In this document: positions 2,776-60,825 of the stretch, piece by piece
How positions within the stretch are numbered: position 1 is the first letter of the stretch
Layout of the letters: the number at the start of each line of letters is the position of its first letter
Assembly (NCBI RefSeq): GCF_013282215.1
Contig: NZ_CP048103.1
Coordinates: 2,604,001-2,668,000, forward strand
Source of the DNA: Kroppenstedtia eburnea
Lineage (GTDB): Bacteria > Bacillota > Bacilli > Thermoactinomycetales > DSM-45169
Length of the DNA: 64,000 nt
Direction of reading: 5' to 3'
Notes under the pieces: model-generated
Seen by the model: the letters and a program-made list of their open reading frames with translations, nothing else
Databases searched by the model: none
What the model was told of the DNA's origin: nothing
Position numbers and translations under genes: made by a program

Positions 2776-2901
2776 TCATCCCGGTTGGTCTGAGTTGTAT
2801 TTGGATACAGGCAGATCACTTGGAGTCACGGTGCCCAGTGATAATAAGGAGAAAAGAAATGCGGCCGACAAGGAGAAAAAAACAACTTTACCGAACCTCA
2901 T
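2776..2901 (-). CDS. Small secreted signalling peptide precursor (Phr-like), overlaps regulator stop
   Basis: A 41-codon gene in another frame from the regulator. Its ATG lies inside the last codons of the XRE-TPR gene (14-base overlap) and is preceded by AGGTGA at 5 bases. The product has a classical export signal: MRFGK, an uninterrupted hydrophobic stretch at residues 6-23 (VVFFSLSAAFLFSLL...), then a polar tail TPSDLPVSKY ending NSDQPG. Size, signal and overlap with the TPR regulator are those of RRNPP pre-peptides (Phr, PapR, NprX), which are exported, trimmed and re-imported to bind the regulator. No homologue search was possible; the mature peptide is probably within the last 5-12 residues. 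A terminator follows immediately. Confidence 0.75.
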   Translation of the reverse strand: MRFGKVVFFSLSAAFLFSLLSLGTVTPSDLPVSKYNSDQPG

Positions 2902-4222
2902 TCAAGTCACCTGCTTTTCTCTGGTTGAGTGTTTCCTGTACAGTAAACATATTAACCGTACATAGTTGAAATTCCTTCTCGTCAATCCCTTCCCAACACC
3001 GGGCCAGTTCATGCCACGCTTCATACTCCTTCTCCCCTGTATGATACTTCTGTGCGAGCTCAACCACCCGCCGGTAACAAGCAATCCCTTCTTCTCTTCT
3101 GTTTTGCTGAACAAGCAGACGTCCCAGGGCCAATGAGGCATCCATCTGATCCATATAATCTTCTATTTGTTCCGCTTTTTGAATCGCTTGGGTCAGATAC
3201 TTCTCGGCCTGACTCCATTTCTCTTGATGGGTGTACAGGATTCCCAACTGAGTGCAAGCACGCAGAAAGGATTTTTCATCCACTCGATCCCGGGGGAGTC
3301 CAAGTGCGATTTTGAAACAGTTTTCTGCTTCCTCCCATTTTTTCTGAGCGGTGTGGACACTTCCGAGAACACTCCAAAGAGCGAGGGCGCTGTTGTATTG
3401 CTGATTGATGCCAGCCAACTGGATGCCCTCCAGGGCGAATTTTTTCGCGTTTTCATAATCACGGCTCCTGCGGAGCAACTCCGCCCGCAACCAATAGAAA
3501 GAGAGTCTGGTTTCCACCGGTTCAATTTGCGGGAGTTCCTCCCAAACGTCCCGAACGATTTGCAAGGACTCCACGATCCGGCCCAATCTCTCCAAGTAGA
3601 TGGCTTTGTTTCGTAACAAGAAATATTTAACCCATGGTCTCTCTCCAGCCGGACAGAAGGCATCCAGGCCGCTGTCGGCATACTGCAGGGCCTGTTGCAG
3701 ATTGTTGTTATAGTAACTGCAACGACTCAAATCTTTGAAACTGTAGGCTTCGATGTTGTCTATCTTTGCGGTTTCGTTTTTATTGGCCAAGCGGATGGCC
3801 GTGAAAAACTCCCGTTCCGCTTTGTTGAGTTTTCTCTGATGCAGGTAACAGGTGCCCTTGAGCCAATGAGCTTGGGAGGCATACAAGTGGTCGTCGGGGA
3901 TGGGCGTCTTCTCCAGTAACGACAGGGCTGATTCACTCTGATCCAATCGGTTCATCGACTCGATCAGCGTCAGTCGGAACTTCAACTCGGCCTGGTCATC
4001 TCTCTCCCTCAGCAAGAATTCCGGCAGCTGCTCCATGGGGATACCCAACTTCTCCAGGATGTAGTAGACCTTCTCCATCTTCACATGGGAGACACCTCTC
4101 TCCACATTGCTGATCGTCGCCGGAGAAATGTTGTCATCAGCCAAATCCTCCAGACGAAGGCCCCGTTCTTTTCGGACCTTGCGAATGATTCCGCCAATTT
4201 CATGTATATCCAAGACCTTCAA
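2888..4222 (-). CDS. XRE-family regulator with C-terminal TPR domain (RRNPP type)
   Basis: Peptide-responsive transcription factor of the PlcR/NprR/Rgg class by architecture. Residues 8-62 form the helix-turn-helix (IGGIIRKVRKERGLRLEDLA... SPATISNVERG). About nine TPR-like helix pairs fill the remaining 370 residues, with FYWLRAELLRR, LGILYTHQEKW and LARCWEGIDEKEF clearly TPR. It is 444 aa, normal for NprR-like proteins. The stop overlaps the start of the small exported peptide gene, the expected partner. A paralogue with the same layout is at 55726-57060. The AT-rich upstream region (CTGATATAAAATAG) resembles that of the paralogue. Target genes cannot be told from the window. Confidence 0.9.
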   Translation of the reverse strand: MKVLDIHEIGGIIRKVRKERGLRLEDLADDNISPATISNVERGVSHVKMEKVYYILEKLGIPMEQLPEFLLRERDDQAELKFRLTLIESMNRLDQSESALSLLEKTPIPDDHLYASQAHWLKGTCYLHQRKLNKAEREFFTAIRLANKNETAKIDNIEAYSFKDLSRCSYYNNNLQQALQYADSGLDAFCPAGERPWVKYFLLRNKAIYLERLGRIVESLQIVRDVWEELPQIEPVETRLSFYWLRAELLRRSRDYENAKKFALEGIQLAGINQQYNSALALWSVLGSVHTAQKKWEEAENCFKIALGLPRDRVDEKSFLRACTQLGILYTHQEKWSQAEKYLTQAIQKAEQIEDYMDQMDASLALGRLLVQQNRREEGIACYRRVVELAQKYHTGEKEYEAWHELARCWEGIDEKEFQLCTVNMFTVQETLNQRKAGDLNEVR

Positions 4223-4609
4223 CCCCTGTCACCTTCCATATCCAAGATATTTTCCACTATTTTATATCAGATCAAGTTGAATGAAAATAGATTGAAAGAC
4301 TCTTCCTGCAACTCTTACCCCTGTCGTATAACTTTTGGATCGGGGAGAAGCGGGGGCAACACGGATTGTGGGATTTGTGCTTCAGCTCCTGCCCGTCGTT
4401 CCGGCCTTCGGGTCGGTCTATTGCAAAGCCGCAGAAAACGGAAGGAGTCCGGCACCCATGGCAACGGGAATCGGACTCCTGACCGCAAACCGTGTCACAG
4501 GTTGTATAGACAACGGTGACTACGGATTTGTGCTTTTTAAAGTTCACTTGCTTTATTCTGTCATACAGGAGAAAACTTCTCTCCGGTTCAGTGTTACTCT
4601 CCTCTTCCT
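4223..4609. other. Intergenic region between hsdR end and regulator 1
   Basis: No convincing gene. It has a hairpin around 4441-4487 (GGAGTCCG...CGGACTCC) and a loose direct repeat (ACGGATTTGTGCTT near 4360 and 4522). A 91-codon minus-strand ORF is present but shows no coding character. Confidence 0.4.
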
Positions 4610-46531: not shown

Positions 46532-46749
46532 ATGGAAACAAAACTGACCTCTCGTTCTGAGGATCCACTTGATTTGCGGCCGGTCCCCCCCGGTTTTGAA
46601 ATGCGGCGATGCCACTGTCGACGAATTGCAAGGCTTGCTTCAAATCATTCTGATAGAAACTGCACAGGCTCAACTCATTGAAAGCGGCCGCTTCCAAATC
46701 GGTGGGGGTTTGGCTACTTTCAGAAGATGTGCGCTCCGCGCTTTTCCAT
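46532..46749 (-). pseudogene. Fragment of an XRE-TPR (RRNPP-type) regulator
   Basis: About 70 codons matching the middle of the two intact regulators: AER..., then LEAAAFNELSLCSFYQNDLK and QALQFVDSGIAAFQNRG, compare EAASFCELGICAYMQNDLE and AIQFTNSAWGAFKDNG. After QNE the frame breaks; VSMTYFLVNQ in another frame may continue the match (VKYFLLRNK). No helix-turn-helix and no peptide gene. It lies directly behind the LD-carboxypeptidase stop, in the same direction. Confidence 0.75.
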
Positions 46750-46756
46750 TCTCCTT

Positions 46757-47680
46757 TTACCCACTCACTGTCGGCTCCAGCACGGTCAAGGTGTTGTTGT
46801 AGGTGTTCAGGTTCACCCTGGCTCCGATGGGGAGGGCGGCTTTGTATGTTCCGTGTGCGGTGGTGAGATGGGTCAGGAGGGGCTTTCCGAGGGGGACGAG
46901 GAATTCGTTGATCAGATCCTCGTATGATTTCCCGTAGGCCACCTGACAACCTGTACACTCTCCCATGATGACACCGATACAATCATCGAACTTGCCGGCC
47001 AGCTTCAGGTGATTCAGATGCCGGTACACCTTATTGATCGGTTCATGGGTCTCTTCCAGAACCAGGATCTTATCCCGCGTATCGATTTCAAACGGGGTTC
47101 CCAAAGTATCGATAAAAGAGAGCAGGTTTCCCCCGACCAGGGGTCCGGTCACATTTCCAGGAACCCGGCTCATCAGCGGGACCCCCGGTGGATTTTGGAT
47201 CGATCTGGGGGAGATGAAGGTGGACACCGCCGCAAAAAACTGGTCGAAGTTGTACGCCGGTGTCGCCAGCTGGAAATCGATGAGCAGAAGGCTTTGAAAG
47301 GTGATCAGATCGGCATATTGATAGAGGACATTCAACAGTCCCGTGATATCGCTGTAACCGGTGACAATCTTGGGATGGCGCCGGATCGTATCGAAATCCA
47401 GATACGGGAAAACTCCGGCAACCCCCACACCGCCCCTGGAAGGTAAAATCATTTTCACCTGTTCATTTCTGAACATGTTCATCAAATCGGAGGCCCGTTC
47501 CTGATCCGTACCTGCCAGAAACCCGTTTTGAGCATAGACGTGTTCACCCAACACGACTTGAAACCCCATGCCTTGCAAAGTTTGGACCCGCGCATCGATG
47601 ACACTCGCATCCAGCGGACTTCCCAGGGTCACGATCCCAATGGTGTCCCCCGGTTGCAGAATCGGCGGTCTTGTGGCCAC
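46757..47680 (-). CDS. S66 family LD-carboxypeptidase
   Basis: 307 aa cytoplasmic peptidase that trims the terminal D-residue of muropeptide tetrapeptides during wall recycling; some relatives confer microcin C7 resistance. Start PPILQPGDTIGIVTLGSP; nucleophile serine in TGYSDITG near residue 109, glutamate in LVLEETHEP and histidine in LTTAHGTY complete the Ser-Glu-His triad. GTG start with GGGGGAGGA. Single gene. Confidence 0.92.
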   Translation of the reverse strand: MATRPPILQPGDTIGIVTLGSPLDASVIDARVQTLQGMGFQVVLGEHVYAQNGFLAGTDQERASDLMNMFRNEQVKMILPSRGGVGVAGVFPYLDFDTIRRHPKIVTGYSDITGLLNVLYQYADLITFQSLLLIDFQLATPAYNFDQFFAAVSTFISPRSIQNPPGVPLMSRVPGNVTGPLVGGNLLSFIDTLGTPFEIDTRDKILVLEETHEPINKVYRHLNHLKLAGKFDDCIGVIMGECTGCQVAYGKSYEDLINEFLVPLGKPLLTHLTTAHGTYKAALPIGARVNLNTYNNTLTVLEPTVSG

Positions 47681-55200: not shown

Positions 55201-55410
55201 ATGAATGAAAAGCATGCAGACCAGGAGTTCAGTCAAGACCATCGCTTGCACATCTTGCAGGAAGCTCAGCTGGAATGCACGATCATCACTGTGAATGGAA
55301 TTCATATCAAGGGAACTGTCCAATCATTCGATAAATATGTCGTCTTGATCCGCACACACTCCGGAAATCAGAGTATGGTCTATAAACATGCAATCTCCAC
55401 GATCAAATAG
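55201..55410 (+). CDS. hfq: RNA chaperone Hfq
   Basis: 69 aa, short Gram-positive type. Sm1 motif in LECTIITVNGIHIKGTVQSFDKYVVLI and Sm2 motif in MVYKHAISTIK (the YKH that binds U-rich RNA). ATG after GAGAGGG. Hexameric RNA-binding protein. In Bacillus it follows miaA; here it stands alone, with its own terminator. Confidence 0.95.
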   Translation: MNEKHADQEFSQDHRLHILQEAQLECTIITVNGIHIKGTVQSFDKYVVLIRTHSGNQSMVYKHAISTIK

Positions 55411-55512
55411 AAGAACTTCCTATATGCCATTTCCGACATGGGCGAAGTCCCTGATTTCAGAGAATTGAAATACAACGCTCCCACAACCCCGGAGCCGACG
55501 GATGTATATGAC

Positions 55513-55572
55513 AAAAAATCCGGCGACTTTTCCCAATGCTTTGGAAAAAAGTCGCCGGATTAACGTTTTTTT
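55513..55572. terminator. Strong terminator between hfq and regulator-peptide pair 2
   Basis: AATCCGGCGACTTTT stem with its complement, A-run before and TTTTTTTT after; works for both directions. Confidence 0.85.
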
Positions 55573-55613: not shown

Positions 55614-55742
55614 TTAAGTATGACCGGGAACATTGGTCAGGGCTTCTTCTGATGATTGGGATAACACATCGGGGGTCTCAGTAAAAGCAAAAAAACTGAA
55701 CATAATTACCAAGGCCAGAGAACACCTAATCCATCTCGTCAA
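55614..55742 (-). CDS. Small secreted signalling peptide precursor 2 (Phr-like), overlaps regulator stop
   Basis: 42-codon ORF in another frame, from TTG 55742 lying 17 bases inside the regulator gene, with GGTGA 5 bases upstream. Product: basic MTRWIRCS, hydrophobic LALVIMFSFFAFT (residues 9-21), then polar TPDVLSQSSEEAL ending TNVPGHT. Same geometry as the gene at 2776-2901: overlap with an XRE-TPR gene, export signal, short polar tail. Probably the pre-signal read by the adjacent regulator. An internal ATG (residue 14) would lose the export signal. Confidence 0.65.
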   Translation of the reverse strand: MTRWIRCSLALVIMFSFFAFTETPDVLSQSSEEALTNVPGHT

Positions 55743-57060
55743 AAAAATCACCATCCTTGTCCTTTAGTAGCCTTTTCACTTGATACATATTCAGCATACA
55801 TTTCTGAAATTCCTTCTCGTCTAACGAATGCCAGCATTCGGCCAGTTTAAACAGAAGCTTGTATTCTCTTCGCTGTAGTGTATGCTTTTGTGCAAAATCG
55901 AGAGCACGTTGATAGTATTCGATGGCCTCTCTGATTTCATTATTTTTCTTCAAGAGATCACCCATCACCATTAGAGCATAGGTGAGCTGGGAAAGGTCAT
56001 TTTGGTTCTCTGCACATGTAATGGCTTGTCTGATGGCTTCTTTTGCTTCGGAATCTTTATTCTGATGAACATATAGAACGCCCAGTTTCGCAAATGTAGT
56101 CGATAATGTCCTCTGATCGGATAGTATATCCTTGGCACTGAGGGCCGTGTCAAAACAAGATTCTGCAATGTCCAACTCATTCTGGGACGTGTATATGCAC
56201 CCCAGCATTGTCCAAAAATCAAAGATGTATTTGGAGTGATTGTTTTTTACAGCAAGATCCAAACCTTGTTTTGCGTATTTTAAGGCTTCATTGTCTCCCC
56301 CGGTTTTTCGGTGAAATTCAGCCCGTAGCCAGTAGAAAGTCAGCTGAGTCTCTACTTCCTCCACCTCATGCAGTGAATCCCACACCTCTTCTATGACACG
56401 GATTCCTGCATGTATATCCCCAAGCTTATCGAGATATACAGCCTTGTTGCGGTATATCACAAATCGAACATACTGCCGATCCCCATTATCCTTAAATGCT
56501 CCCCAGGCGCTGTTAGTGAACTGTATCGCGCCCTCCAGATCATTTTGCATGTATGCACAAATGCCCAACTCACAAAAGCTGGCGGCTTCAATGTTTTTAT
56601 CATTGTTGGAAGAATGCTGATTTGCAAGTTTGATCGCATTGTAATAAGCCCGCTCTGCCCGTTTGAGGTTCCCCTTTTTAACGAAGCATTTACCTTTCAA
56701 ATAAGCGGCAGTCGCAGCTAATGGATGGTTGTCCTCCAAATTCAAATGTTCAATCTTGTCCATCGCTTTGTCATACTGTTTCAGTTTCCACAGGGACTCC
56801 ACCATTTCAAGTTCCAATTCAACATTGCGGAGCTCGTTCTCTTCTTCCATTAACAAAAATGGAATTTGGCTGGTTTCGATTTTTAACTTGTCCAATAGGT
56901 ACAGGGCCTTATCCATGCTGACATGGGGTACGCCACGTTCGATGTTGCTGATCGTTGCGGGAGAAATATTGTTATCAGCTAAATCTTCCAAGCGGAGTCC
57001 TCTTTGCTTGCGTATCTTCCGAATAATTTCGCCTATTTCCTGAAGTTCGACCGTTTTCAT
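55726..57060 (-). CDS. XRE-family regulator with C-terminal TPR domain (RRNPP type), second copy
   Basis: 444 aa from ATG 57060 (MKTVELQEIGEIIRKIRKQRG), 6 bases after GGAAGGTGG. Helix-turn-helix nearly identical to the first regulator (RLEDLADNNISPATISNIERGVPHV), so both may bind similar operators. TPR repeats follow (CELGICAYMQNDLEGAIQF, FYWLRAEFHRKTGG, FAKLGVLYVHQNKDSEA). Its end overlaps the peptide gene. The TPR part is more diverged than the DNA-binding part, as expected if each copy reads its own peptide. Confidence 0.9.
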   Translation of the reverse strand: MKTVELQEIGEIIRKIRKQRGLRLEDLADNNISPATISNIERGVPHVSMDKALYLLDKLKIETSQIPFLLMEEENELRNVELELEMVESLWKLKQYDKAMDKIEHLNLEDNHPLAATAAYLKGKCFVKKGNLKRAERAYYNAIKLANQHSSNNDKNIEAASFCELGICAYMQNDLEGAIQFTNSAWGAFKDNGDRQYVRFVIYRNKAVYLDKLGDIHAGIRVIEEVWDSLHEVEEVETQLTFYWLRAEFHRKTGGDNEALKYAKQGLDLAVKNNHSKYIFDFWTMLGCIYTSQNELDIAESCFDTALSAKDILSDQRTLSTTFAKLGVLYVHQNKDSEAKEAIRQAITCAENQNDLSQLTYALMVMGDLLKKNNEIREAIEYYQRALDFAQKHTLQRREYKLLFKLAECWHSLDEKEFQKCMLNMYQVKRLLKDKDGDFFDEMD

Positions 57061-57299
57061 AACATACCACCTTCCCCTTGAGTTAAGTTCCACTCTCATT
57101 CTACTTCCATCTGACGATAATTGGAATATCCTATATCAGAATAATAGGGAAAAATTTATACTCTTGACCACCTCTTAGGGAGGTACCACCAATAGGGAAG
57201 CACCCACGTTATCAAAAGAGCAAGACCATCTAACCTAAGAGGACCTTTCAGTAAGTAACAAATAGAATATCTGTTATCAACGGCCATTCGATATATATA

Positions 57300-57342: not shown

Positions 57343-59886
57343 TTAAACATCATACACCCGCAGCTCAAAGGGTTCCTCCACGTACAGCTCGATCTTCGCA
57401 CCGGTGACGTCTTCCAACCGCAGGATGCAGGGTTTCCCTGCGAAGTCCCTTCCTTCAATCAAGGTGAAGGTGGTCTCGGTGTGGCGATCGGGTGCTTCCC
57501 GGTCGCTGTCGAAGACGAGGGTGACTTCATTGGAGATCCGTTCGTCCCCTTTGTAAAAGGCGGCCCGGAGATGGCGGGGGCGGAAGTCCCGGGAGACCTT
57601 CTGTTCCTGGAAAAAGAGGGCATTAAACTGGTAGTGGGTGATCACCTTAGAGCGCATGGCCACCCGGACATCGACATACGCTTCCTCCCTCTTCCGTCCC
57701 CGGCCGTGAATTTCCCGGTATTGGATCACCGGTACCACCACCTCCTGAGGCATGGCCCCGCCGTGGACAAACTTCATCCCGCCCCCAGCTTTGAAGCGGT
57801 TCAGTCCCCCCGCCACCACTGCCTCCAGATCGAGGTTCAAATAATCGAGGGAGACACGTTGGGCCCCGGGGGTCACCGTCAAATCCCGACCGATGGCAAA
57901 ACGGCGGTGTTGCTCCATGACCTTGCCCTCCACCCGGTCGGCCAACCGGTCCGCCTCCAACGGAGAGTGCTGGTACAAAAACCCGTGGTCAGCGGTGATG
58001 AAGATCCGCTTGGCACTGAAGGTACCGGTCAGTTTGCCCACGACGCGTTCCAGTTCCTCAATCGCTTGCTGAACATCGTCAAAGGTGTAGGTCTCCGTCA
58101 CCTGCTGATCTCCGGTGGCATCGATCCGGTTGTGATACAGATAGACCACCCGCCGCCCCCGGATTGCCTCCAGCCCTTTCTCCTTCCCCAGCTGGATCCA
58201 ATCATCCAGGCGGAAAGCCACCCCGTCGGGAACCGCCTGTTGCAGAATTTTCTCCCGGGTGCTCACACCTGTGGCCGGAAGCTCTTCCACATAGACCGTG
58301 CCCTGTTCATCGATCCGGGTCACCTTTCCCGGGAGCAACGCTCCCATACCCAGCCGGGTGTAAGACGGCAGGGTGGCTTGCATCGGTTCCAGAGACACCT
58401 CCGCGTTCAGACGCTGGCCCAGTTTTTCAAACAGCTCCGCCCCCGCTTCATAACGGAGAGCGTCAGAGATGATGACAAAAATCCGCTCTGTGGTCTTCTC
58501 CACCAGAGGGGCGATCCGCTCCCGGAAAAAAGCCGACTGCTGCAACACCCCGTTGATGGGCCAACGTGCGGCCAATTCCCGGGTCATCATCCGATCGGTG
58601 TAGTCGGCCAGATCCGGCAAAAACTCCTCCTCCACCCACCGGGTCAAATGATCCCGAAGGGGGGTCAGTTCATCAGGCATCCCCGCCTGATTGTAGATCC
58701 ACATCAGTTTACGGTAGATCTGATCAATTTTGTAGTCGTGTTCCGTATAGGCCCGGATCCAATCCCGGCCCTTCAATCGGTAGTGGGCCTTATGGGCCTT
58801 TTCTTTGTACAGAGTGAGGGAGAGGGCATGGGAGAAGAAACTGTAAGCGTTACGAATCCGTTTTTCCTCTGCCCAATATCCGGACAAACGTTGATCGATC
58901 ATCTGATCCAGGCCGAGTCCGCTCACACGGTGGTAAAGTAACAGGTCCTGGAGGTTCTCCAGCACCACCTCGTCCGTCAGCGGAAAGGTGAGGCAGTCCA
59001 CCAAGCGGTCCAGGGGAAGCTCCCTCAACTTCCCGTACAGACCCCAATCCGATTCCAGTTGCTGCACCAGGGGTTTGAGAACCTTGCGGCCCCGCTCTTC
59101 CCGCAACCAATCTTCCAGAAACACATAACAAGTGTTGGGCAGCCGCGTCTCATACCGGGGCAGAATCACTTCCGTCTCCGGTGCGCAGGTGACGGCATGA
59201 CACCAGACCATGGTGGCGAAAACCTCTTTCAAGGAGGGAGACTCGGTCTCCCTCAACCCGAAGTGGGTGTAGATCCATAAATAAAAATCCTCGAGAGGGG
59301 CAAATTTCCCGATGCGGATCAAGGCCTGATTGCTCTCTTCCTTCAGCCCCTCCCCGATAACAGCACGAAACACATCCATCGGCTGGGCACTGTTGGCCTG
59401 GGCCAACACAGCAAAGACCGCCGCCTTCCAATCCCCTTCCTTGCCCTGCAAGGGCAGCAGCCGTCGGAACTTTTCTTTCCGCCGTTTTTCCCGGAAAAAC
59501 AGCTTGTACCGCTGTAGGAACGAACGGGCCCGGTTGAGGTCCAGGCCCAGCTCCTCCGCCAGCAGGGCGGTCTCATCGGTTTTAAATTCCGCGGAATACA
59601 GAAGGATGTCCAACAACATGTTCCGCTCCGGTTCCGGTCTGGCAAAGGGAGCGTAAAGGAGAAAGGAAGTCTCCCGTTGCTCCACTTCCAGAAGGTATTT
59701 GATCTGAAAAGCGTTGTCTTCCCTCAATTCCCGAACCTGGATTCCCTCTCCCTTCAGAGTGTCCCGGATCTCCCCCAGTTCCCGCCCATCGGCATCTTCG
59801 TCATACCAGAATACGATCCCCCGCTTCAGGGGGGAGCGTTGTTTTTCCCGTTCAAACAACTCCAGCAATTTGTTGACCAGCTCCAC
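57343..59886 (-). CDS. pglZ: BREX-type phosphatase PglZ (orphan)
   Basis: 847 aa. N-terminal PglZ segment (VNKLLELFEREKQ...GIVFWYDEDADGRELGEI), long helical middle, alkaline-phosphatase-like core with VIISDALRYEAG near residue 469 and FITADHGFLYQHS near 630, C-terminal beta domain. GTG 59886 chosen because the protein then starts as family members do; the open frame begins 33 codons earlier. PglZ is the constant protein of BREX phage-defence islands, which also need BrxC/PglY, PglX, BrxA and BrxB. None of those is present on either side within the window, so this is a remnant or acts with unlinked parts. Confidence 0.88.
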   Translation of the reverse strand: MELVNKLLELFEREKQRSPLKRGIVFWYDEDADGRELGEIRDTLKGEGIQVRELREDNAFQIKYLLEVEQRETSFLLYAPFARPEPERNMLLDILLYSAEFKTDETALLAEELGLDLNRARSFLQRYKLFFREKRRKEKFRRLLPLQGKEGDWKAAVFAVLAQANSAQPMDVFRAVIGEGLKEESNQALIRIGKFAPLEDFYLWIYTHFGLRETESPSLKEVFATMVWCHAVTCAPETEVILPRYETRLPNTCYVFLEDWLREERGRKVLKPLVQQLESDWGLYGKLRELPLDRLVDCLTFPLTDEVVLENLQDLLLYHRVSGLGLDQMIDQRLSGYWAEEKRIRNAYSFFSHALSLTLYKEKAHKAHYRLKGRDWIRAYTEHDYKIDQIYRKLMWIYNQAGMPDELTPLRDHLTRWVEEEFLPDLADYTDRMMTRELAARWPINGVLQQSAFFRERIAPLVEKTTERIFVIISDALRYEAGAELFEKLGQRLNAEVSLEPMQATLPSYTRLGMGALLPGKVTRIDEQGTVYVEELPATGVSTREKILQQAVPDGVAFRLDDWIQLGKEKGLEAIRGRRVVYLYHNRIDATGDQQVTETYTFDDVQQAIEELERVVGKLTGTFSAKRIFITADHGFLYQHSPLEADRLADRVEGKVMEQHRRFAIGRDLTVTPGAQRVSLDYLNLDLEAVVAGGLNRFKAGGGMKFVHGGAMPQEVVVPVIQYREIHGRGRKREEAYVDVRVAMRSKVITHYQFNALFFQEQKVSRDFRPRHLRAAFYKGDERISNEVTLVFDSDREAPDRHTETTFTLIEGRDFAGKPCILRLEDVTGAKIELYVEEPFELRVYDV

Positions 59887-59954
59887 ACTTCCACCCGCTT
59901 TCCCCGTCACTGAACCTTCATCCGATCGAGGCTTCCTCCGAATGTAAAGTATAA

Positions 59955-59986
59955 CAAAAAAGGATGAGCAGCGGCGGCTGCTCATC
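59955..59986 (-). terminator. Terminator after the PIN toxin gene (duplicated hairpin A)
   Basis: Minus strand GATGAGCAGC-CGCC-GCTGCTCATC followed by CTTTTTTG. The same stem recurs at 60826-60856. Confidence 0.8.
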
Positions 59987-60021: not shown

Positions 60022-60447
60022 CTACTCTTCGGATTCAAAAAACCGAAGGAACTCACCTGGTGTATAGATTGCAAAATATTCCTGTATCTCAGGGCTTTTA
60101 AAGTCCTTATCACCGGTAACAATCAGATCCGGCTGACTGATAACCGCTGACGCCAATATCGGTAGATCATTTTCATCCCGGATCTGAGGGAGATCCAATT
60201 GAGAAAAATCCTCGGGAGTATAGACCAGTTCAAAAGACATCTGGGATAACTGACGATCCCAGAAACCCAGTTGATCGGGGAATTTCTTCGCCACGACGCG
60301 GGATGTTTCCGAAATGATGAAGGTCGAAAGGACCAATCGATGCTTCTCCAGAATCGTTTCAAGAAATTTTCGGGATTCGCCGCGAAATAACATCGCGGAG
60401 ATCAGCGCGCTGGTGTCAACGAGGACGCGAAATTGATTTTCGCTCAT
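60022..60447 (-). CDS. PIN domain ribonuclease toxin (VapC-like)
   Basis: 141 aa. PIN fold with the acidic residues of the Mg site: FRVLVDTSALISAM (D near 10), STFIISETSRVV (E near 48), DENDLPILASAVISQPDLIVTGDKDF (three Asp). Toxin cutting tRNA or rRNA in the family. Overlaps the upstream AbrB-type antitoxin gene by 32 bases. Confidence 0.85.
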   Translation of the reverse strand: MSENQFRVLVDTSALISAMLFRGESRKFLETILEKHRLVLSTFIISETSRVVAKKFPDQLGFWDRQLSQMSFELVYTPEDFSQLDLPQIRDENDLPILASAVISQPDLIVTGDKDFKSPEIQEYFAIYTPGEFLRFFESEE

Positions 60448-60694
60448 CGAGCAACTCCTTGCGCACCTCTTTGATACTTTGCATGATCTCTTCCTCCGTG
60501 CAGCCTTTTTCCTCCGTTACCCGGCTCAGTTCATCCGCCAATTCGCGGAAAGCCTTCAGGCTGGCTTTGGTGAAGAGGATTTTTCCATCTTCTTCGATGA
60601 ATGCAACCTTGTCTCCCTCACGGATCTGCAACTTTTCCCGAATGGACTTTGGTATCACCACTTGCCCCTTTGTCGAAACGCGAGAAACTTCCAT
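60416..60694 (-). CDS. AbrB/SpoVT-type antitoxin of PIN toxin module
   Basis: 92 aa. N-terminal swapped-hairpin DNA-binding domain (VSRVSTKGQVVIPKSIREKLQIREGDKVAFIEEDG) and a helical toxin-binding tail (AFRELADELSRVTEEKGCTEEEIMQSIKEVRKEL). ATG 60694 after GGAGGT. Autoregulated antitoxin; first gene of the module. Confidence 0.88.
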   Translation of the reverse strand: MEVSRVSTKGQVVIPKSIREKLQIREGDKVAFIEEDGKILFTKASLKAFRELADELSRVTEEKGCTEEEIMQSIKEVRKELLDERKSISRPR

Positions 60695-60825
60695 CAAATC
60701 TTACCTCCTTTGTTTCTCTTACACCTATTATATCCATCTCATCCAAAAAAACAAAAGATGAATTCTAATGAACTCTTCAAATGCCCGACATCACTATTAA
60801 ACGACTAGACGGGGTTTCCCGAGCG

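What the first reader, a model, noticed from the sequence alone, without database searches (positions are those of the whole stretch)
55614..57060. Second regulator-peptide pair with the same overlap geometry
Seen: TTG-started 42-codon frame begins 17 bases inside the second XRE-TPR gene, again with basic start, hydrophobic core and polar tail ending NVPGHT. The helix-turn-helix is almost the same in both regulators while the TPR parts and peptides differ. Inference: two signalling circuits with different peptides possibly converging on similar operators.
Basis: partly seen in the sequence, partly recalled or inferred. Interest (0 to 1): 0.78.

Follow-up and report, generated by a model that had tools for sequence, protein, structure and literature searches.

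The report
Overlapping regulator-pheromone gene pair, RRNPP type
A regulator gene and a tiny secreted-peptide gene overlap at their ends and together look like a bacterial cell-to-cell signalling pair of a known type (RRNPP), one of many such pairs in this order of spore-forming bacteria, whose signals share a recognisable ending.

Summary
Regulator 55726-57060(-) is an XRE helix-turn-helix plus about nine TPRs. The small frame 55614-55742(-) begins 17 bases before the end of its stop codon and ends NVPGHT. It is far above chance: 50 of 85 related receptor genes carry such a frame at the same place, against 2 of 246 other genes. In the window locus the frame shows 4 synonymous and 1 non-synonymous differences from Kroppenstedtia guangzhouensis. 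In 62 of 79 propeptides the last proline is fourth from the C-terminus. Ten of 79 repeat the C-terminal 5-7 residues, up to seven times, which points to a mature signal of about 6-7 residues (here TNVPGHT or NVPGHT). The family is in 42 of 42 genomes of the order and in none of 360 sampled genomes of the class outside it. Best explanation: an RRNPP-type pheromone/receptor operon, with NprR and Rap among the best structural matches. Pair 1 is a paralogue: heads 66% identical, TPR parts 36%; both promoters carry a family element. Convergence on shared operators is plausible but unproven. New member of a known kind.

The parts
55726..57060 (-). XRE-HTH + TPR regulator (444 aa from ATG 57060), the putative pheromone receptor
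   Evidence: Pfam HTH_3 5.7e-7 and several TPR families; AF2 model mean pLDDT 86.4, HTH plus about 9 TPRs; NprR Z 27.4, Rap Z about 25; PlcR, Rgg2/Rgg3 entries among sequence hits
55614..55742 (-). Overlapping propeptide ORF, TTG start, 42 codons; alternative starts GTG 55751 and ATG 55754 in the same frame
   Evidence: K. guangzhouensis orthologue 98% identical, 4 synonymous vs 1 non-synonymous differences outside the overlap
55617..55637 (-). Predicted mature pheromone, C-terminal TNVPGHT (hexapeptide NVPGHT also possible)
   Evidence: Proline fourth from the C-terminus in 62/79 propeptides and tandem repeats of the C-terminal 5-7 residues in 10/79; inference for this copy
55726..55742 (-). 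17-base overlap of regulator 3' end and propeptide 5' end (29 bases if the ATG is used); Shine-Dalgarno-like AAGGA lies just upstream inside the regulator
   Evidence: conserved in L035, L043, L036, L097
55512..55561 (-). Strong intrinsic terminator after the propeptide (20 bp stem and U tract) closing a two-gene transcript
   Evidence: RNA fold -29 kcal/mol for 68 nt, z -6.1; the simple scan lists none
57096..57129 (-). Promoter-like element shared by the receptor family: ATATTCCAATTATCGT...TAGAATGA at -69 from the start codon
   Evidence: PWM trained on other genomes scores 18.5 here, p=0.005 against shuffles; pattern found 4 times in the genome, 3 of them before receptors
2888..4222 (-). 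First XRE-TPR regulator of the window (paralogue, 40% identical over 444 aa)
2776..2901 (-). First propeptide (41 codons, ATG at -14), tail KYNSDQPG
   Evidence: orthologue L026 ends YNSDQPGG
4257..4290 (-). Same promoter-like element before the first regulator (-68)
   Evidence: Score 22.1, p=0.005

Best explanation
This is an RRNPP-type quorum-sensing operon. One promoter drives the receptor gene and the overlapping propeptide gene, and a terminator closes the transcript. Ribosomes start the propeptide inside the receptor's 3' end. The propeptide is exported through Sec, trimmed outside the cell to its last six or seven residues (TNVPGHT or NVPGHT), and re-imported by an oligopeptide permease. 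It then binds the concave face of the TPR superhelix and changes DNA binding by the HTH head, probably at the operon's own promoter among other sites. Pair 1 is a paralogous circuit with another signal. Shown here: gene anatomy, conservation, C-terminal code, repeats, terminator, fold similarity, presence of Opp-type binding proteins. Inferred: translation, export, processing, import, binding, whether the peptide activates or inhibits, and the target genes.
For: 50/85 receptors against 2/246 control genes have the overlapping signal-like ORF; 28/80 in other families of the order by nearly the same criteria, lengths up to 100 aa. Last Pro fourth from the C-terminus in 62/79 propeptides; 10/79 repeat the C-terminal unit, e.g. 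QSEPGGL x4, SAFPGPT-type x6-7. Mostly synonymous differences from the orthologous propeptide: 4 syn, 1 nonsyn, S=24.7, N=77.3, one-sided Fisher p=0.012. Receptor and peptide-core distances correlate (Mantel r=0.27, p=0.0002, n=45), more for TPR (0.28) than HTH (0.12). Model aligns over residues 72-433 with NprR (5dbk Z 27.4, 347 residues) and with Rap-peptide complexes. PlcR and Rgg2/Rgg3 entries among sequence hits. Terminator z -6.1. Six SBP_bac_5 (Opp-type) proteins over the cut-off in the genome.
Against: No expression, mass-spectrometry or binding data. In K. guangzhouensis the orthologous receptor is internally deleted while the peptide persists, so the pair is not kept together everywhere. 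35 of 85 receptors in the family and 52 of 80 elsewhere in the order have no peptide by the criteria used. LGN and other eukaryotic TPR proteins score as high as NprR in the fold comparison, so the fold alone is not specific. pN/pS pooled over six own/K. guangzhouensis propeptide pairs is only about 0.5 (0.194/0.377). The Mantel test does not remove shared ancestry.
Confidence: 0.88

Rival explanations
1. The small frame is a chance open frame at the end of the regulator and is not translated.
For: Start codon is non-ATG in the four relatives compared and ambiguous here; 35/85 receptors lack a detectable peptide.
Against: Control rate 2/246 against 50/85; fixed offset (22/85 at -17, 24/85 at -14); mostly synonymous differences; conserved C-terminal proline and tandem repeats.
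Confidence: 0.04
2. The small protein is a translated membrane or secreted microprotein (such as a toxin, or a regulator acting on its neighbour's product) whose C-terminus is not a signal.
For: N-terminal basic/hydrophobic segment alone would fit a small membrane protein.
Against: C-terminal units repeated up to 7 times and proline mostly fixed fourth from the end argue that the tail is the product; the neighbour is a receptor-type TPR protein similar to NprR/Rap/PlcR.
Confidence: 0.06
3. The pair is a decaying copy: the receptor functions as an orphan regulator or the locus is on its way out, as in K. guangzhouensis.
For: Receptor internally deleted in K. guangzhouensis with peptide 98% identical; own genome holds several broken receptor copies (L009, L011/L012, L014-L016).
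Against: Window receptor is full length and open, 62-75% identical to full-length relatives with peptides, and promoter element and terminator are in place.
Confidence: 0.1

Closest known systems
AloR/AloP of Paenibacillus polymyxa (PMC7425212; passages seen)
   Same: HTH-TPR receptor followed by a 30-50 aa secreted propeptide that can partly overlap the receptor's 3' end; strong paralogue expansion (16 aloR in ATCC 842, up to 40 in one genome); 6-aa C-terminal signal SHGRGG; one circuit changes expression of other alo genes
   Different: Described there as essentially confined to Paenibacillaceae; signal differs from the (S/N)(E/D)PGxx type here. Direct sequence comparison with AloR was not done
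NprR/NprX of the Bacillus cereus group
   Same: HTH plus TPR receptor; best RRNPP structural match (5dbk Z 27.4 over 347 residues; 4gpk Z 25.0); C-terminal short signal with a proline (SKPDIVG, recalled)
   Different: 14-15% identity in the aligned TPR part; many paralogues here, single system in B. cereus (recalled)
PlcR/PapR
   Same: Sequence hit over residues 6-152 (E 1.4e-4); PapR7 ADLPFEF (abstract start listing) also has proline fourth from the C-terminus
   Different: PlcR is a 293-aa chain, against 444 aa here
Rap/Phr of Bacillus and its phages
   Same: TPR fold match Z about 25 including peptide-bound forms; downstream propeptide genes and many paralogues (recalled)
   Different: Rap proteins act on protein partners (PMC11343458 introduction), the family here has a well-kept HTH
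RRNPP_detector candidate clusters (PMC10075063; abstract, section 7 and passages seen)
   Same: 21 candidate subfamilies predicted; four candidate QSS-linked biosynthetic clusters in Thermoactinomycetaceae
   Different: No named system for this order in the passages read; supplementary tables could not be opened, so this family may be one of theirs

Membership tests
RRNPP(A) pheromone receptor systems | Receptor with N-terminal HTH and 5-9 TPRs forming a superhelix | tested here: met
RRNPP(A) pheromone receptor systems | Adjacent small propeptide gene with Sec-type N-terminus (basic, then hydrophobic) | tested here: met
   hydrophobicity rule only, no signal-peptide predictor was run
RRNPP(A) pheromone receptor systems | Mature signal of 5-10 residues at the C-terminus | tested here: inconclusive
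   Inferred from fixed proline and tandem repeats; processing not observed
RRNPP(A) pheromone receptor systems | Re-import through an oligopeptide permease | tested here: inconclusive
   Six Opp-type substrate-binding proteins in the genome; import not shown
RRNPP(A) pheromone receptor systems | Peptide binds receptor and alters its activity | not testable with these tools
   Needs biochemistry
Alo (AloR/AloP) | Sequence homology to AloR receptors of Paenibacillaceae | not tested
   AloR sequences were not at hand; no match at E<=1e-30 in 360 sampled genomes of the class outside the order, at most four candidates scored per genome
NprR | NprR fold over HTH and TPR | tested here: inconclusive
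   TPR part aligns at Z 27.4, HTH part not covered by that alignment, 14% identity

The most novel reading that the evidence does not exclude
The whole order uses one pheromone grammar, (S/N/T)(S/D)(E/D/N)-Pro-(Gly)-x-x-COOH, read by an order-wide receptor family. The many paralogous receptors in one cell keep one DNA-reading head and one promoter element, so that a dozen private peptide channels are wired to the same set of operators (above all to each other's promoters), forming a many-signals-to-one-output, cross-regulating network.
Probability: 0.3. Interest if true: 0.65.

Novelty: new member of a known kind. Interest (0 to 1): 0.47.

Why it matters
It adds a whole bacterial order to RRNPP-type signalling, with up to 26 receptor matches in one genome and a signal ending regular enough to predict peptides for synthesis. 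If the conserved heads really share operators, it would be a natural test of how cells keep a dozen parallel peptide channels apart when all read the same DNA.

Tried and rejected
Phage and plasmid origin: tblastn of the receptor found no match in 50,697 phage or 72,556 plasmid records.

A named scan of genome contigs gave one locus only, L019 from K. guangzhouensis, with a partial receptor. A sequence-profile search of the PDB was swamped by generic TPR proteins: NprR is not among the 60 rows shown of 154. PlcR and Rgg2/Rgg3 entries appeared only with the single protein or the HTH alone.

The simple terminator scan found none; folding did. The sigma-70 scan lists two weak sites, neither at the family element. 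The strict promoter pattern is found 4 times in the genome, 3 of them before receptors (L001, L003, L005); the fourth, at C1:2722438, was not followed. The motif model used a wrong start for the window regulator and was redone with aligned starts and held-out genomes. The -35-side half alone separates receptors from control genes only moderately (AUC 0.71), and 6 of 21 receptor promoters tested did not exceed their own shuffles with the full element (three loci, L013, L018 and L034, were left out there). Other-gene controls are not matched for base composition; one search is.

Receptors without a peptide were read in two frames downstream and gave nothing convincing. The 35-aa frame of L008 passes the hydrophobicity rule but lacks the C-terminal proline and I do not count it as a pair. 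Rows dropped: 3 of 96 receptor stretches end too close to the contig end; the remaining 93 include partial copies and two spurious hits (L017, L018).

Papers: PMC10075063 abstract, section 7 and passages; PMC9765709 section 7 and passages; PMC7425212 passages; PMC11343458 introduction and passages; PMC12700828 passages; others only as search listings. Searches for SEPGGL, NVPGHT, SAFPGPT and SDQPGPW found no paper; searches pairing Kroppenstedtia, Thermoactinomycetaceae or Thermoactinomyces with quorum-sensing terms listed no paper on this system.

Full report
Observation. The regulator 55726-57060(-) and the TTG frame 55614-55742(-) are as described. The frame starts 17 bases before the end of the regulator's stop codon and reads MTRWIRCSLALVIMFSFFAFTETPDVLSQSSEEALTNVPGHT. 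The start codon is not certain: this genome and K. guangzhouensis also have an ATG at -29 behind AAAGGA, while the relatives L035, L043, L036 and L097 keep TTG at -17 and lack the ATG, three of them with AAGGAGG nine bases before the TTG. The first pair of the window is 2888-4222 with a 41-codon ATG frame at 2776-2901, start at -14, same relative frame.

Chance. A search of the window's own genome (3.56 Mb) lists 18 matches to the regulator, which I group into 13 receptor loci. Eight of the 13 have a signal-like frame overlapping the stop; two of these eight (L011, L014) go with a receptor gene broken into pieces. Over ten genomes of the family, 50 of 85 receptor genes have such a frame starting at -45..+5, against 2 of 246 other genes from the same stretches and the window. 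At exactly -17 it is 22/85 against 0/246, at -14 24/85 against 1/246.

Coding selection. The orthologous propeptide in K. guangzhouensis (G001; its contig C2 has the length of NZ_BMEX01000002.1) is 98% identical. Outside the overlap there are 4 synonymous and 1 non-synonymous differences (S=24.7, N=77.3; one-sided Fisher p=0.012). Six own/K. guangzhouensis propeptide pairs pooled give pS 0.377, pN 0.194. In that species only receptor residues 133-209 and 387-444 are found, so the signal gene has outlived its receptor there.

The signal. In 79 propeptides (51 from the family, 28 from other families of the order) the last proline is fourth from the C-terminus in 62; the rest are at positions 1-3 (14) or 6-7 (3). 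The common form is (S/N/T)(S/D)(E/D/N)PGx(G/S/T), with G after the proline in 25 of 50. Ten of 79 propeptides repeat their C-terminal unit: QSEPGGL four times, NSEPGGL three times, SEDPGMS three times, SAFPGPT-type six and seven times. The repeats define the unit as about 6-7 residues, so the window's signal is probably TNVPGHT or NVPGHT and that of pair 1 a shortened SDQPG form. Published RRNPPA propeptides carry up to six copies (PMC9765709), so repeats are a known trait.

The receptor. Pfam finds HTH_3 and TPRs. The AlphaFold model from the two window proteins has mean pLDDT 86.4 with an N-terminal HTH and about nine TPR hairpins. Among 954 PDB chains aligned, apo NprR ranks second (Z 27.4, 347 residues, rmsd 5.2), and several Rap structures with bound peptide score 23-25; LGN-type eukaryotic TPR proteins score equally, so the fold alone is not proof. 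By sequence, the HTH hits in the PDB are led by entries 4yv6/4yv9 and 7ji0, whose 4YV6/4YV9 and 7JI0 codes PMC9765709 lists as Rgg2 and Rgg3, and PlcR is hit over residues 6-152. This puts it in the RRNPP kind.

Range. 42 of 42 genomes of the order (27 genera) have matches at E<=1e-30, 1 to 26 each. Of 398 genomes drawn from the class, the 38 with a match all belong to this order (at most four candidates were scored per genome there). No phage or plasmid record matches. In 80 receptors of other families of the order, 28 have a peptide by nearly the same rule, with lengths up to 100 aa allowed.

Two circuits, one operator? HTH identity of the two window regulators is 66%, TPR 36%; over 11 own receptors the means are 64% and 37%. 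The region R23-V47 is strongly conserved across 83 receptors. Receptor distance correlates with distance of the peptide core (Mantel r=0.27, p=0.0002, n=45), more for TPR (0.28) than HTH (0.12). A 34-base element learned on 59 promoters of eight other genomes lies at -69 and -68 before the two window regulators (scores 18.5 and 22.1, each p=0.005 against dinucleotide shuffles; 15 of 21 receptor promoters p<0.05). With the -10 half left out the signal is weaker but present (10 of 21 p<0.05; AUC 0.71 against other genes). The strict form is found 4 times in the genome, 3 times before receptors. This fits autoregulation and cross-regulation through one family operator; it would also fit a common ancestral promoter. 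In P. polymyxa one AloP signal changes the expression of other alo genes (PMC7425212).

Mechanism proposed. A two-gene transcript from the element at 57096-57129 ends at the hairpin 55512-55561 (z -6.1). The propeptide is started inside the receptor gene, exported, cut to its last 6-7 residues and re-imported (six Opp-type binding proteins exist). It then sits in the TPR superhelix and switches the HTH head. Whether the peptide activates or inhibits cannot be told; both occur among RRNPPA systems (PMC11343458). No conserved neighbouring target gene was found: the stretches held around the relatives L035, L043, L036 and L097 (1.5-2 kb on each side) show none of the window's neighbours PglZ, Hfq, antiporter or PIN.

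Verdict. A real, ordinary-in-kind but previously unnamed (in the papers I could read) RRNPP pair, part of an order-wide expansion with a regular signal ending. The supplementary tables of PMC10075063 could not be opened and may list it.

Noticed in passing
46536-46757 (-): Relic of a further receptor of this family (residues 129-203, 37% identical, E 1.5e-10), without HTH or peptide.
   Followed up: partly
L065 2300-2850 and L064 about 1501-1590: K. guangzhouensis keeps the pheromone gene although its receptor is deleted, and holds a second degenerate copy of the peptide's C-terminal half, also ending INVPGHT, next to an antiporter gene.
   Followed up: partly
L119, L120: Propeptides with six and seven back-to-back heptapeptides of the SAFPGPT type.
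   Followed up: no
L002, L021: Receptor conserved in both Kroppenstedtia genomes with no peptide in either: a possible orphan or listening receptor.
   Followed up: no
57343-59985 (-): PglZ-domain protein (880 aa) directly upstream of the regulator; in K. guangzhouensis the receptor relic is fused to a truncated copy of it. No BREX partner genes were looked for.
   Followed up: partly
55201-55410 (+): 69-aa Hfq protein convergent with the pheromone operon.
   Followed up: no
60022-60697 (-): PIN-domain protein behind a 93-aa AbrB-like frame (my reading): likely toxin-antitoxin pair.
   Followed up: no
L101 5998-8954: Two receptors in tandem (L003, L005), each with its own peptide and near-identical promoter elements.
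   Followed up: no
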